DNA from: Neocallimastix lanati (nom. inval.)
Taxonomy: Eukaryota > Neocallimastigomycota > Neocallimastigomycetes > Neocallimastigales > Neocallimastigaceae
Reading direction: 5' to 3'
NCBI GenBank assembly: GCA_016946835.1
Contig: JACVTC010000012.1
Coordinates: 948,501-1,012,500 of the forward strand
Length of the DNA stretch: 64,000 bases
In this document: positions 39-57,640 of the stretch, piece by piece
Layout: every line of letters starts with the position of its first letter
Position numbering within the stretch: position 1 is the stretch's first letter
The notes under the pieces: generated by a model
Told to the model about the DNA's origin: nothing
Database searches by the model: none
What the model saw: only the letters and a program-made list of their open reading frames with translations
Position numbers and translations under genes: made by a program

Positions 39-110
39 AGCAGCGTAGCGCAGTGGGAGCGTGGTGGGCTCATAACCCACAGGTCGTATGATCGAAACAT
101 ACCGCTGCTA
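39..110 (+). tRNA. initiator tRNA-Met (CAT), copy 1
   Basis: A 72-nt cloverleaf can be folded. The acceptor stem is AGCAGCG with CGCTGCT, followed by discriminator A. Eukaryotic initiator hallmarks are visible: an A1:U72 pair, three consecutive G:C pairs closing the anticodon loop CTCATAA, and an ATCGAAA T-loop with A54 and A60. The internal Pol III A box TAGCGCAGTGG is intact. There is no intron. This copy differs from the array consensus by one A-to-G change in the D loop. A T-run follows within 12 nt and can serve as the Pol III terminator. Confidence 0.93.
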
Positions 111-445
111 AATGATAAATTTTTATTATTTTATTAGGATTTTTTTTTTTTTTTTATATTTTACTATGCTATTATTATTATTATTACTATTATTATTATT
201 ACTATTATTTATACTACAATTTTTTTTTAAATAATTTTATTTTAAAAAATTATTATTATTATTATTATTATTGTTATTTATTATTATTATTATTATTATT
301 ATTATTATTATTATTACTATTATTTATACTACAAATTTTTTTTTAAATATTTTTATTTTAATAAATTTTTAAAAAATTATTTTCATCATCATTAATAAAG
401 AATAAAATTTTTATTACTGTTTATATATACATATAAGAAAAAAAA
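111..445 (+). repeat. tRNA-unit spacer, unit 1 (T-runs, TTA microsatellites, conserved tail start)
   Basis: This is the standard downstream part of the repeating unit: a poly-T stretch, (TTA)n blocks, the line ending ATTTTCATCATCATTAATAA, then TTTATATATACATATAAG and an A-run. The unit is interrupted at the A-run by the LTR at 446-1176 and resumes at 1177-1227 with CCGAATTCTATACATAG and GACATCC. No coding capacity; long Leu/Ile/Tyr ORFs here are translations of the microsatellite. Confidence 0.8.
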
Positions 446-1176
446 TGTTAAAATTAAGATATAAAATAGTTTTATGATTAATAACGTTACTAGGTTAATA
501 TGTTGAATTATATATTAATAATCCAACAATAATTAATTAATAATAATATAATTAAAATAATATAGTTAAGTTATTTAAACACTTAATATCTAAGAATATT
601 TTAAATAATAATTTCTTTGAAGGATTTAATGAAAATATTTATTTATTGAATTATTAGTATATAATTATTATAAATACAATAACCTTACAAAGAACATAAA
701 AGATAGATTTTTACATCTTTCTTTTATACTTTGTAAGTTACATAATAATAATATTTAATTATAAGATATTAATAATATAGTAATATGAATATTAATAAAA
801 TATTAAGATAATAACAATATCGATATATTTAAAATATTTAATATAACTAAATAAATTTAATTTATAATTATATAATTAATTTGAATAATTAAAAATAGTA
901 GTTAATATATATGATGTAAACATATATATAAACATAATATAAATAATTACATGTGACGTCATATGTAGATAATTGAAATTATTAATATAAATCTTATTTA
1001 CTAATATTCTCAGAATTATTAGGCCTAAGATAATTCTTTAAATATTAAATAAGAATTTATATTAATTATTAATTATTTAAATATATATATTATTTATAAT
1101 TAAATAAATAATATTTTTTAACTATTGAAATATAAATAACTGAAATTGAGATTTCAATTCAGTTATAATTTCAACA
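446..1176 (-). mobile_element. solo LTR, family Y (731 bp)
   Basis: The left end is TGTTAAAATTAAG and the right end is AATTTCAACA, with inverted TGTT/AACA termini and A-runs on both sides as target duplication. A second copy lies at 45495-46185. It shares layout with family X: GGCCTAA near the middle, a TGAAATTGAGATTTCAATTCA inverted repeat near one end, and an internal pair CTTACAAAG/CTTTGTAAG. Orientation is inferred from family X, whose Gag-like ORF is read on the strand where the LTR begins with the AACTGAA end. No internal region remains. Confidence 0.75.
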
Positions 1177-1227
1177 AAAAAAAATAATAATAATACCGAA
1201 TTCTATACATAGAAAGAAAGACATCCA
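1177..1227 (+). repeat. conserved tail of tRNA unit 1
   Basis: The tail contains TACCGAATTCTATACATAG, AAAGAAAGACATCC and then an A-run. It is conserved in all units and lies directly 5' of the next tRNA where no element has inserted. It includes a TATA-like TATACAT and is the least AT-biased part of the spacer, so it may be a Pol III upstream element. That role is inferred. Confidence 0.6.
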
Positions 1228-1243
1228 AAAAAAACCAAGAAGA

Positions 1244-1315
1244 AGCAGCGTAGCGCAGTGGAAGCGTGGTGGGCTCATAACCCACAGGTCGTATGATCGA
1301 AACATACCGCTGCTA
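1244..1315 (+). tRNA. initiator tRNA-Met (CAT), copy 2
   Basis: This is the consensus sequence of the array, with perfect 7-bp acceptor, D, anticodon and T stems. Initiator features are A1:U72, the GGG/CCC anticodon-stem pairs and the ATCGAAA T-loop. It lies only 16 bp after the GACATCC tail of unit 1, so this is one of two unoccupied junctions showing the original tandem spacing. A T7 run follows about 10 nt downstream. Confidence 0.95.
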
Positions 1316-54215: not shown

Positions 54216-56196
54216 TTTAAAAAAAACACACTTTTAAAAAAAATAAAATAAAAAAAATTGTTTTATTAATTATTTAATTGCTATATTTTTATTTATTTAT
54301 TTATTTATTTACAATTAAAATTATATATTTAAGTAATTTATATCTCTAGTATAAAGTTTTGATTTAAAAAATAGATTATAAGTCAAAAATTATAATAACA
54401 CTAAATAACACAAAAATGTTTTATAAACAAATAAGTTTTATTATATTTAGATTTTAAAATAATCTTTATTAATTATTAGTGTTATTAACAATAAATCGTT
54501 AATAACAATTACATCGATTAAAATACATGAAATTTGGTTAACTATTTATATTTTTATCTTATTACATTTATAATATATAATTCCTATTGAATTATATTAT
54601 CTAACTATTTATTTAAAAACAATACTAACCTAAACTAATAATAAATAATTAACTATTACTAAATAAAGAGAATTATAATTAATAACTAAAATAAATATAA
54701 ACAATTTCAATCGAGCTCATTTATTATTTATTTATTATTTAAATATTATTAATAAATTCTTATTATATTTTCTATTTAAAATTAATATAAAAGTTGTCAT
54801 AATTATTTAATATGATTTTAGCATAAAATGCCGCAAGTTTCAACATGACTAATTGCATAGTTTCATGTTGTTAATTTATCTTGTAAAAAACCTTAACTCT
54901 TATTATTTAAATTAAATTACATAAAAAGAAATGATTTTCAATTACTAGTTTCACAAGAGAAATTTTTAATTTATTAATATGATTGGGAAGAAGTCGAAGT
55001 TTTGTTTAAAATTATTTGCAATAATTTTATACACGTGATTTTTAATAGATTTATTTCAATTTTACTTAAATTTATGATTAAATTTAATTAAAATTTATAA
55101 AGATATTAATAATATCTTTACATCTAGTAAGACGTTTCCGGCTAGTGTATATTTAATTTTGCTATATACACCCGTACTCCCCCTCCTGGACACTAGAATA
55201 AATATAAATTAATAAACTAGTTGGAGTGTTCACTATTCTTTCAAGCTAATAACCCCTTTCGTTTATCTTTACTTAAATAAAAAAAAATATATACAATTAT
55301 TTACAAAAAAAAATTTATTAATATAGCAATTAAAAATATTTAAAAACACAAAAATTAATATTATTTTTTTTTTTTTTTTTTTTTTTTTTATTTATTTGTT
55401 ATCGGTTATTATTACAATATTTACAATTACAATTACAATTATTATTAAGTTTATATAATTACAACTTAAAAAAAACAAATAAACTTAATTAAAAACAAGG
55501 TAAATTAACAAACCTAATACAACTTGAAAAACCGCTATCTATTACAACTGCCGACCACGCAGAGGGACCTTAGTATTTCGGTATACTAAGTGAATTTGCC
55601 TGAGTCAAGTGGAGGAGCACCCAAACCGTGTTGAACGTATAATGGGTGATCTATAGGGTAATTTCTGCTTCCCAACAGTATTTACCGCTATATCTAATTG
55701 GGGTTCGATTAGTTCGTAACCTGCCCCTCTCCAGACACCTGATTAAATCACTCGCAATTATAGAATTATCTATAACTGCTTAGTACGCAGTAAACTCAGT
55801 TTAAAGTTTTATTTGGAGCACGCGAAGACCAAATAAAACTGATGTTAATTTTTATTACTACCACAACAACAACAATCACAACAACAACACAAAAACCGAT
55901 AACAATAAAAAATTTGATGATTATGATTATAAAAGTGTGAAAATATTTTTTTTTTTTTTTTTTTTTTTTTAATTTAGTTTAATTTAATTCTATTAAATTT
56001 AATTTAAAAAATTATTCTCATAATTCCAAAAAAAATAAGTTTTAGTAGTTCCAAATTCCTTATTCTTCCTTTTCTTCTTGGTCTTCTTCTTCTTGGTCTT
56101 TTCCTTCTTGGTCTTCTTCTACTTGGTCTTCTTCTTCTTCTCCTTCTTCTCCTTCTTCTTCTTCTTCTTCTTCTTCCCCGATATCTCCACCAATTT
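54216..56196 (-). other. 2-kb leader of element III
   Basis: Noncoding. 55540-55870 is much less AT-rich and holds several perfect hairpins: CTTAGTAT with ATACTAAG around TTCGGT (55570-55591), and TTTTATTTGG with CCAAATAAAA (about 55827-55858). T-runs at 55364-55389 and 55946-55970 are poly(A) in RNA sense. A CTT-repeat (56070-56175) is GAA-rich in RNA sense and lies beside the primer site 56176-56192. Confidence 0.62.
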
Positions 56197-57137
56197 TGGT
56201 AGACTCGGGGTTGATTCTTATGGATTTAAAATCAAGCAGGAGGGACGGGTATTACCCTGCTTTGATTTTAACAAAATAAAAAAAATTCTTTTTATTAAAA
56301 AGTATTTATTATTTATTAATATAAAAATTTTATTTTTGAAGTACACATATTTAATTTTTAAGAAATATTTACAATATTTATATTTTTTTATGAATTTAAA
56401 GTATAATTATTTGTTTATAATTTAAGTAATTTTATAGAATTATTGAATTAATTTTATATCAATAATTCATTTTTGTTTTAATTTTTATAAATATAATAAT
56501 ATAATATTCAAATATAATTTAATTAAAAATAATTATAAAATAAATATATAGAAAATAGTTTTTACTATTTTCTTTGATATTTTTAAGTTAAATAAATTGT
56601 TTTTAAAGATTAATATAATAAATTTAATAATCTTTAATTATTTTAAATAATACTTGTAATTATTTTCAAAAACAAAATAAAATTTTTATAATATTTAATT
56701 AATAAATTTGATAATATTTAAATAATAATTTTTATAATAAGTAATAATTTTTAATAATAATTTTTAATAATAAATTTAATTAATAATCTTAATAATTTTA
56801 TAATAATATTTAATAGTTATAATAAATAAATTTTTATAATAATTTTATAATAATTTTTATAATAATATTTAATTAATAGTTTTAATAATTTAGTATCTTA
56901 AAAGTATAATTTTAATATTTACAATTGTATTTTAATATATACATATATTTATAATTTATAATATAACAATAAAGTAATTAATTAAAATTTATTTACATTA
57001 TTTACAAGTTAAAATTAATTTATATCAAAATAAATTAAATTTTATTATTAAGTTTAGGTTATCAAGAATATAGGAAAGTACAATTTAGTAAAGAATTATT
57101 AATAATAAAATAGAGGTTATTAATTCATTATTTACCA
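56197..57137 (-). mobile_element. 5' LTR of element III
   Basis: Partner of 48182-49203. It ends TATTTACCA, then CAAAAACTCAAGG and tRNA copy 8. Confidence 0.85.
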
Positions 57138-57153
57138 CAAAAACTCAAGGAAA

Positions 57154-57225
57154 AGCAGCGTAGTGCAGTGGAAGCGTGGTGGGCTCATAACCCACAGGTC
57201 GTATGATTGAAACATACCGCTGCTA
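57154..57225 (+). tRNA. initiator tRNA-Met (CAT), copy 8, A-box and T-loop variants
   Basis: The cloverleaf is intact. TAGTGCAGTGG replaces TAGCGCAGTGG in the A box, and the T loop reads ATTGAAA as in copy 6. Both Pol III internal promoter boxes are therefore changed. A T7 run follows. Confidence 0.87.
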
Positions 57226-57640
57226 AATGATAAATTTTTTTATTTTATTAGGATTTTTTTTTTTTTGTTATTTTACTATGCTATTATTATTATTATTATT
57301 ATTATTATTATTATTATTATTATTATTATTATTATTATTATTATTATTATTATTATTATTATTATTATTATTATTATTATTATTATTATTATTATTATTA
57401 TTATTATTATTATTATTATTATTATTATTATTATTATTATTATTATTATTATTATTATTATTATTATTTATAATACAAATTTTTTTTATAAATATTTTTA
57501 TTTTAATAAATGTTTAAAAAATTATTTTCATCATCAATAATAAAGAATAAAATTTTTTATTACTATTTATGTATACATATAAGAAAAAAAAATAATAATA
57601 ATACAGAATTCTATACATAGAAAGAAATACATCCCAAAAA
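57226..57640 (+). repeat. spacer of tRNA unit 8 with a very long TTA microsatellite
   Basis: An uninterrupted (TTA)n of roughly 62 units spans about 57282-57468, the longest in the window, followed by the conserved tail ending CATCCC and A5. The poly-Leu and poly-Ile ORFs here are not genes. Confidence 0.85.

What the first reader, a model, noticed from the sequence alone, without database searches (positions are those of the whole stretch)
39..57640. Tandem initiator-tRNA array used as a landing pad by many LTR retrotransposon families
Seen: eight initiator tRNA-Met units, all on the + strand, with the same downstream spacer and tail. Two junctions are empty and give the original tail-to-tRNA spacing of about 16 bp. 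The other full junctions hold stacks of LTR elements whose last LTR ends 13-16 bp upstream of the mature tRNA (10510/10526, 20031/20045, 24956/24971, 36173/36188, 57137/57154). Known: yeast Ty3 integrates at the Pol III start a similar distance upstream of tRNA genes, and some Dictyostelium elements also target tRNA flanks. Inferred: several families here (I, II/III, IV, P, H, L) share this targeting, and the array of one tRNA species acts as a safe haven or trap.
Basis: partly seen in the sequence, partly recalled or inferred. Interest (0 to 1): 0.88.

Follow-up and report, generated by a model that had tools for sequence, protein, structure and literature searches.

The report
Retrotransposons stacking on tRNA start sites
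In what looks like an anaerobic gut-fungus genome, many families of jumping elements land about 14 letters in front of tRNA genes, pile up there, and also hit a tRNA-like promoter carried inside another jumping element.

Summary
Eight initiator tRNA-Met units lie on the + strand. LTRs end 13-18 bp upstream of five of them, in stacks with gaps of 1-5 bp, mostly 4.

It is not special to initiator tRNA. Of 98 non-redundant tRNAs held, 37 have a recurrent LTR boundary 11-18 bp upstream (peak 14), in seven isotypes. Random anchors: 61 of 2901.

A, C and D are Ty3/gypsy by domain order. Solo B LTRs have identical 4-bp flanks in 8 of 11. The C-E-D stack keeps what reads as C's LTR end in the tRNA flank, so later insertions re-hit the site; a forward test of this held at 1 of 5 other loci.

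New: a ~5.3-kb Ty3/gypsy element, "K2", carries a tRNA-type A/B-box promoter in its LTR (13 of 17 copies). LTR-like insertions interrupt K2 LTRs at +15 to +19, the same distance from those boxes: 4 of 21 and 12 of 20 copies. So the Pol III promoter, not the array, most likely sets the site. No tether or transcription was tested.

The parts
39..110 (+). initiator tRNA-Met 1; an LTR end (cattcttatca) lies 4 bp upstream
446..1176 (.). LTR-like insertion F (TG...CA) inside the tail of unit 1, ending ~67 bp before tRNA 2
1244..1315 (+). initiator tRNA-Met 2 (last 16 bp of its upstream junction intact)
1846..8759 (-). Ty3/gypsy element A (LTRs 1846-2602 and 8003-8759, 99.5-99.9%); pol pieces on - strand
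8763..9268 (.). solo LTR G, preceded by AAA, followed by gap AAAA
9273..10510 (.). LTR H region, last before tRNA 10526 (15 or 18 bp); may hold two LTRs
10526..10597 (+). initiator tRNA-Met 3
11163..11234 (+). initiator tRNA-Met 4, wholly empty upstream junction (637-bp unit)
11581..12780 (.). solo LTR E, between AAAA and AAAA
12785..13290 (.). solo LTR G, then gap AAAA
13295..19102 (-). element B (LTRs 99.3%); integrase and zinc knuckle pieces on - strand
19108..20031 (.). LTR J, ends 13 bp before tRNA 20045
20045..20116 (+). initiator tRNA-Met 5
24971..25042 (+). initiator tRNA-Met 6, LTR end (gtatca) 14 bp upstream
26677..34246 (+). Ty3/gypsy element C (LTRs 100% identical; Pfam SH3_Tf2-1 at the C end, just under its cut-off), left flank ATTAG
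34248..35097 (.). solo LTR E, 1 bp after C; preceded by ACAA (ACA of C plus A) and followed by ACAA
35102..36173 (.). solo LTR D; followed by ACAATTAGAGAAGA and tRNA 36188
36174..36187 (+). 14-bp flank ACA+ATTAG+AGAAGA, read as last 3 bp of C's LTR plus the 5-bp duplication of C
   Evidence: inference
36188..36259 (+). initiator tRNA-Met 7, degraded copy
48182..57137 (-). old Ty3/gypsy element D (LTRs 86%), ends 16 bp before tRNA 57154; left flank AAAA, right flank CAAA
57154..57225 (+). initiator tRNA-Met 8
58256..64000 (-). element E (LTR 58256-~59339), runs off the window; a 1549-aa open stretch on - strand

Best explanation
Many LTR families of this AT-rich genome, Ty3/gypsy where their proteins were read, integrate at a fixed distance, usually 13-17 bp, upstream of the 5' end of genes with a tRNA-type Pol III promoter. 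Shown from sequence: the spacing; its recurrence at seven tRNA isotypes; 4-bp target duplications for families A and B; stacks with short gaps; and the same spacing from the A and B boxes carried by K2 LTRs. Inferred: the integrase or pre-integration complex docks on the Pol III initiation complex (TFIIIB/TFIIIC/Pol III), as described for Ty3. Strand transfer then occurs near the Pol III start. The insertion leaves the promoter and a fresh copy of the target next to it, so the site is regenerated and hit again. Stacks grow with the youngest element nearest the tRNA. Tandem single-isotype tRNA arrays (iMet, Arg) simply offer many such sites and swell as they fill.
For: Window anatomy. tRNA-anchored test: 48 of 98 tRNAs have a recurrent boundary at 11-18 bp; I removed 11 by eye (5 second-of-pair genes where the boundary is the Asn tRNA end, 6 empty array units), leaving 37 of 98; random anchors 61 of 2901. 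In tRNA-chosen sets alone: 12 of 28 iMet rows and 17 of 54 Arg/Asn rows; the other 8 are 6 rows from loci chosen by family A (Thr, Val, Cys, Ala, two Arg) and 2 window rows. Offsets peak at 14 (12 of 37), range 11-18. Family A LTRs: 7 of 30 loci end 11-13 bp from a tRNA, 5 distinct sites. Identical 4-mers flank 8 of 11 solo B and 3 of 7 solo A LTRs. C-E-D stack with ACAA gaps and the ATTAG flank. A prediction of a repeated 4-mer, written beforehand, held at L146: CA-TTAC-TG twice, 0.009 expected by composition. K2. Ty3/gypsy domain order for A, C, D; Ty3 is the best solved relative of C and D.
Against: The prediction was confirmed at 1 of 5 loci. L142 and L144 gave no match in the 3.2-3.5 kb fetched (whether the far end of the next LTR was inside is not settled), L143 was interrupted by K2 and D before the far side, and in L145 the next tRNA flank lacks the predicted remnant. 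C copies were never seen next to a tRNA (0 of 20 within 150 bp), nor were the 20 sampled B copies, although B's end is next to tRNAs in L030 and L129. None of 11 scored C copies has identical 5-mers on both sides. 61 of 98 tRNAs have no accepted boundary: some are empty units, some second genes, some LTR ends too rare in the held DNA to score. One unit (39) has its LTR 4 bp away. AAAA gaps are weak evidence in an A-rich flank. No Pol III start site, transcription or protein contact was measured.
Confidence: 0.93

Rival explanations
1. The LTRs simply prefer A-rich DNA, and the tRNA flank happens to be A-rich.
For: The window gaps are mostly AAAA and the genome is very AT-rich.
Against: Other sites have identical flanks GCTT, GTCG, TTCA, TCTT and CAAT. 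A-rich DNA is everywhere, yet random anchors give 61 of 2901 against 37 of 98. K2 copies are hit in a 5-bp interval.
Confidence: 0.03
2. Few real insertions occurred; unequal crossing-over copied filled units, so the many occupied junctions are not independent.
For: Some loci are plain duplicates (L037/L038, L056/L057; L111/L112/L117), and the array itself is a tandem duplication. Six of the eight K2 right junctions read carry the same LTR family.
Against: Each filled junction in the window has a different set of families; six end clusters occur at two or more isotypes; identical 60-bp flanks of one isotype were collapsed before counting, 115 to 98.
Confidence: 0.04
3. The tRNA units are mobile tRNA-like copies (SINE-like) that landed next to LTRs.
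For: tRNA units are numerous and repeated.
Against: Units sit head to tail with shared spacer and tail and an empty junction; where both flanks were readable the duplications are around LTRs; seven of eight window copies score as good tRNAs, 54-62 bits.
Confidence: 0.02
4. Pol III targeting is right, but the guide is DNA-bound TFIIIC at the B box or open chromatin rather than the initiation complex.
For: K2 LTRs share A and B boxes with tRNAs but are not recognised as tRNAs.
Against: The 11-18 bp precision fits the start region better than a B box ~50 bp downstream; not tested directly.
Confidence: 0.2

Closest known systems
Ty3 of Saccharomyces cerevisiae (Ty3/gypsy)
   Same: Ty3/gypsy domain order; insertion at the Pol III start region of tRNA genes (review PMC5911963, passages); Ty3 is the best solved relative of C and D by sequence.
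   Different: Families A and B make 4-bp duplications (Ty3's 5 bp is recalled, not from a call); many families share the target; they stack in tandem tRNA arrays in a ~199-Mb genome.
Tj1, Tca8/Beta, Ylt1/Tyl3/Tyl6, DGLT-A (Ty3/gypsy at tRNA genes)
   Same: Ty3/gypsy, upstream of tRNA genes: 6-30 bp for Beta/Tca8, 13-33 bp for DGLT-A, ~5 bp upstream of the start for three Yarrowia families (PMC5911963, passages).
   Different: PMC5006619 (abstract and passages) ties the habit to compact genomes; this genome is large. Stack remnants and LTR-borne targets do not appear in the passages I saw.
Helenus / TRIMp3 and Cassandra (Pol III promoter in the LTR)
   Same: K2's LTR carries tRNA-type A and B boxes, as Helenus LTRs do (PMC10886601, passages).
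   Different: Helenus are short non-coding TRIMs; K2 copies are ~5.3 kb with gag in the one copy read. K2 LTRs are landing sites for other families, which is not in the passages I saw.
Entamoeba tandem tRNA arrays
   Same: tRNA genes in tandem units with short-repeat spacers (PMC2652664, start of abstract in a listing).
   Different: Entamoeba units hold up to 5 tRNA genes; the units read here hold one isotype (iMet ~0.57-0.64 kb; Arg ~0.54 kb) and are interrupted by LTR stacks.

Membership tests
Ty3/gypsy (Metaviridae) | RT-RNase H before integrase | tested here: met
   C and D in one frame; A across two pieces. B: integrase and zinc knuckle pieces only, so not shown for B. E not scanned.
Ty3/gypsy (Metaviridae) | closest solved relative is Ty3 | tested here: met
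   7q5b, E 1e-117 (C) and 2.2e-105 (D); A, B, E not run.
Ty3-type Pol III start targeting | insertion in a narrow interval upstream of tRNA genes of many isotypes | tested here: met
   37 of 98 tRNAs, seven isotypes (four of them only in loci chosen by family A), 11-18 bp
Ty3-type Pol III start targeting | position coincides with the Pol III transcription start | not testable with these tools
   no RNA data
Ty3-type Pol III start targeting | 5-bp target duplication (recalled for Ty3) | tested here: not met
   A and B: 4 bp. C: 5 bp inferred from flank fragments only; 0 of 11 scored copies have identical 5-mers.
Ty3-type Pol III start targeting | integrase contact with TFIIIB/TFIIIC | not testable with these tools
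Helenus / TRIMp3 (for K2) | tRNA-like A and B boxes in the LTR | tested here: met
   13 of 17 unoccupied copies, strict pattern with recalled consensus boxes
Helenus / TRIMp3 (for K2) | short, non-coding (TRIM) | tested here: not met
   several LTR motif pairs ~5.2-5.3 kb apart among the 100 of 240 places listed; gag in a 1.4-kb internal piece of one copy
Helenus / TRIMp3 (for K2) | Pol III transcription of the LTR | not testable with these tools
   no RNA data; Rfam has no match at E<=1 in 7 loci, boxes only

The most novel reading that the evidence does not exclude
A coding Ty3/gypsy element (K2) spreads tRNA-type Pol III promoters through its LTRs, and these act as mobile landing sites for at least half a dozen other Pol III-targeting retrotransposon families. 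Pol III targeting has thus become a network among elements, in which one family seeds target sites for the others away from tRNA genes and may absorb insertions otherwise aimed at tRNAs. The occupied-site positions suggest that the boxes without a tRNA gene suffice to fix the insertion point.
Probability: 0.65. Interest if true: 0.85.

Novelty: new variant of a known kind. Interest (0 to 1): 0.74.

Why it matters
tRNA targeting by Ty3/gypsy elements is known from ascomycete yeasts and Dictyostelium and has been explained as a way to live in compact genomes. Here it appears in a large, repeat-rich genome, with many families sharing one site and leaving a partly readable order of insertion. The stacks could serve as a natural clock, and the K2 LTRs are a natural experiment that separates the Pol III promoter from the tRNA gene. 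Whether K2 is transcribed by Pol III, and so whether an LTR-borne promoter can recruit other elements, becomes directly testable.

Tried and rejected
Exact search with a 39-base initiator pattern recalled from other eukaryotes: no match; replaced by the window's own tRNA. BLAST-end mapping of boundaries was too noisy in AT-rich DNA and was replaced by exact-word extension. I considered that C jumps into existing LTR-LTR junctions. This is rejected for the window stack because ATTAG recurs in the tRNA flank, but the forward test elsewhere was confirmed at only 1 of 5 loci. Rfam on 20 loci found only the two tRNAs of L145 at the gathering threshold; Rfam does not see the K2 boxes. The papers searches listed nothing; some searches listed papers, and no listed title or abstract start describes this system (I did not open those papers, except PMC5911963, PMC5006619 and PMC10886601, of which I saw passages).
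Full report
WHAT IS THERE. The window is C24:948501-1012500 of a 199-Mb, 762-contig genome. It is very AT-rich (2-kb bins 12-43% GC). Among the 120 listed relatives of a pol protein from the window, the closest that bears a source's name is an Orpsp1_1 model at 74% identity over 85% of the query; that this label means Orpinomyces, an anaerobic gut fungus, is recalled, and the host is therefore an inference. 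Eight initiator tRNA-Met units lie on the + strand with a shared spacer and tail. The genome search scored 40 of 58 candidates and all 40 matched at 99-100%; five of them lie upstream on C24 within 55 kb. A second array, tRNA-Arg(TCT), runs through C555:170-399 kb, with empty units about 540 bp apart where read.

STACKS. Self-comparison and boundary reading give, before tRNA 10526: tail-A-G-H; before 20045: tail-E-G-B-J; before 36188: C-E-D; before 57154: a full old D element. Neighbouring LTRs are separated by 1-5 bp: 1 at C-E, 3 at A-G, 4 or 5 at B-J, 4 at the others read. The gap is usually AAAA; it is ACAA between E and D and again between D and the rest of the tRNA flank. LTR identities within an element (100% C, 99.3% B, 99.5-99.9% A, 86% D) show that the habit is both recent and old. 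A, C and D carry RT-RNase H-integrase order; B was read only for integrase and zinc knuckle. C and D are closest to Ty3 among solved structures. Alignments that include integrase give 80% B-D, about 45-62% among A, B, D and E otherwise, and 28-32% for C.

READING THE C-E-D STACK. C is flanked on the left by AAA-ATTAG. D, nearest the tRNA, is followed by ACA-ATTAG-AGAAGA-tRNA. Between C and E lies one A, so the four bases before E are ACA of C's LTR end plus A; the gap E-D is ACAA. The simplest order is C first with a 5-bp duplication ATTAG, then E and D each re-hitting the 4 bp ACAA that now straddles C's end. I wrote the matching prediction down before fetching five other C loci. It held at one (L146: TTAC repeated at two successive junctions, 0.009 expected by composition). 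At four it was not confirmed: L142 and L144 no match in what was fetched, L143 interrupted by other insertions, L145 against. So the re-hit order is well supported in the window and only partly elsewhere.

GENOME-WIDE TEST. I collected upstream flanks of 115 tRNAs, 98 after collapsing identical 60-bp flanks of one isotype. For each I asked where recurrent sequence stops being shared with other contexts. 55 have a boundary backed by two or more contexts, 48 of them at 11-18 bp. By eye I dropped 5 second genes of Asn-Arg pairs (the boundary is the Asn tRNA end) and 6 empty array units, leaving 37 of 98. Random anchors in the same DNA: 61 of 2901 at 11-18 bp, spread over all distances. By source: 12 of 28 iMet rows and 17 of 54 Arg/Asn rows, both chosen by tRNA; 6 rows in loci chosen by family A, the only source of Thr, Val, Cys and Ala; and 2 window rows. 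The 37 fall into 11 end clusters under a loose grouping that merges some families and splits others; six clusters occur at two or more isotypes, and offsets peak at 14 (12 of 37). Of 30 family-A LTR loci, 7 lie 11-13 bp from a tRNA, at five distinct sites: Thr, Val, Cys, Ala and Arg. The sampled B and C copies (20 each) show no tRNA within 150 bp; many are bordered within a few bases by sequence that recurs as another LTR's end. B's end is found at tRNAs in L030 and L129.

TARGET DUPLICATIONS. For LTR copies scored as having two outer flanks, 8 of 11 B and 3 of 7 A have identical 4-mers; of the other seven, five differ at one base. One A row (L039) and one C row (L067) look like inner flanks. 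For C none of 11 has an identical 5-mer. This is expected if a later LTR landed on C's end, but it is not proof.

K2, A MOBILE TARGET. One A, one B and one D insertion away from tRNAs (L042, L089, L143) share the left flank TGTAACGAAATCTT. The 15-mer TGTAACGAAATCTTC occurs 240 times in the genome, 0 for the reversed control; of the 100 places listed, several are paired about 5.2-5.3 kb apart, and copies read beside a shared internal end show that it is the start of an LTR. 110 of the 240 continue into an intact 25-mer. Of 17 unoccupied copies read, 13 carry strict A and B boxes at +36 and +79; 4 miss the strict pattern by small changes. The same pattern hits 3 times in 438.5 kb (both strands) of other held sequence, and the two distinct matches read as ordinary tRNAs; 0 of 20000 shuffles of one copy match. 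The pattern misses other real tRNAs, and Rfam does not see the K2 boxes, so this is a tRNA-type promoter rather than a tRNA. A 1.4-kb internal piece of one copy encodes gag. Sequence departs from K2 and begins TG, as an LTR does, at +15 to +19 in 4 of 21 motif copies of a first set chosen partly as pairs and in 12 of 20 of a second set. The second set was taken in list order, skipping copies already read and, by oversight, three others (C46:1793520, C46:1865923, C49:455299), of which the last two are in the intact list. Across both sets there are at least six different starts; D, J and P are recognisable, some others recur in other held loci, and not every one was checked to be an LTR. On the other side, 17 exact places have CA, then TTCA, then the K2 sequence. 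I could read 8 of 17: they end in family M (6), D (1) and, by eye, H (1) termini, families also seen at real tRNAs. An LTR ending at TTCA lies 16 bp from the tRNA-like 5' end, within the range seen at tRNAs.

MECHANISM. The fixed distance from A and B boxes, with or without a tRNA gene, points to the Pol III machinery as the guide, as described for Ty3 (PMC5911963 passages, and recall). Docking, start-site coincidence and Pol III transcription of K2 are inferred.

KNOWN AND NEW. Upstream tRNA targeting by Ty3/gypsy elements is known (PMC5911963, PMC5006619, passages). tRNA-like sequences in LTRs are known from short non-coding Helenus elements (PMC10886601, passages). I saw no description of many families re-hitting one site in tandem tRNA arrays, nor of an LTR-borne Pol III promoter serving as target, in the listings; the library holds open-licence papers only.

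Noticed in passing
L042, L089, L143, L147-L166, L168-L195: K2: ~5.3-kb Ty3/gypsy element with a tRNA-type A/B-box promoter in its LTR, itself a landing site for other LTR families.
   Followed up: partly
window 446-1176 and 36637: LTR-like insertions beginning TGTTAAA sit at the same place in the unit tail, ~67 bp upstream of the next tRNA in the first case; possibly a second target register.
   Followed up: no
window 1-38: LTR end (cattcttatca) only 4 bp upstream of tRNA 39, although the same LTR end lies 14-16 bp away at other tRNAs (L003, L008, L116, L132, L133).
   Followed up: no
L062-L081: Family C, whose 20 sampled copies are all 98.7-99.5% identical to the window LTR, was never within 150 bp of a tRNA; other LTR ends lie within a few bases of many of them.
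   Followed up: partly
L102-L107, L113, L114, L120, L121: tRNA-Asn and tRNA-Arg lie about 13-15 bp apart on one strand, perhaps co-transcribed; where an LTR end was recognised it was upstream of the first gene.
   Followed up: no
C555:170-399 kb (L122-L141): Large tRNA-Arg(TCT) array with many empty ~540-bp units and LTR-filled ones.
   Followed up: partly
window 37115-37600: Dense short-period imperfect tandem repeat.
   Followed up: no
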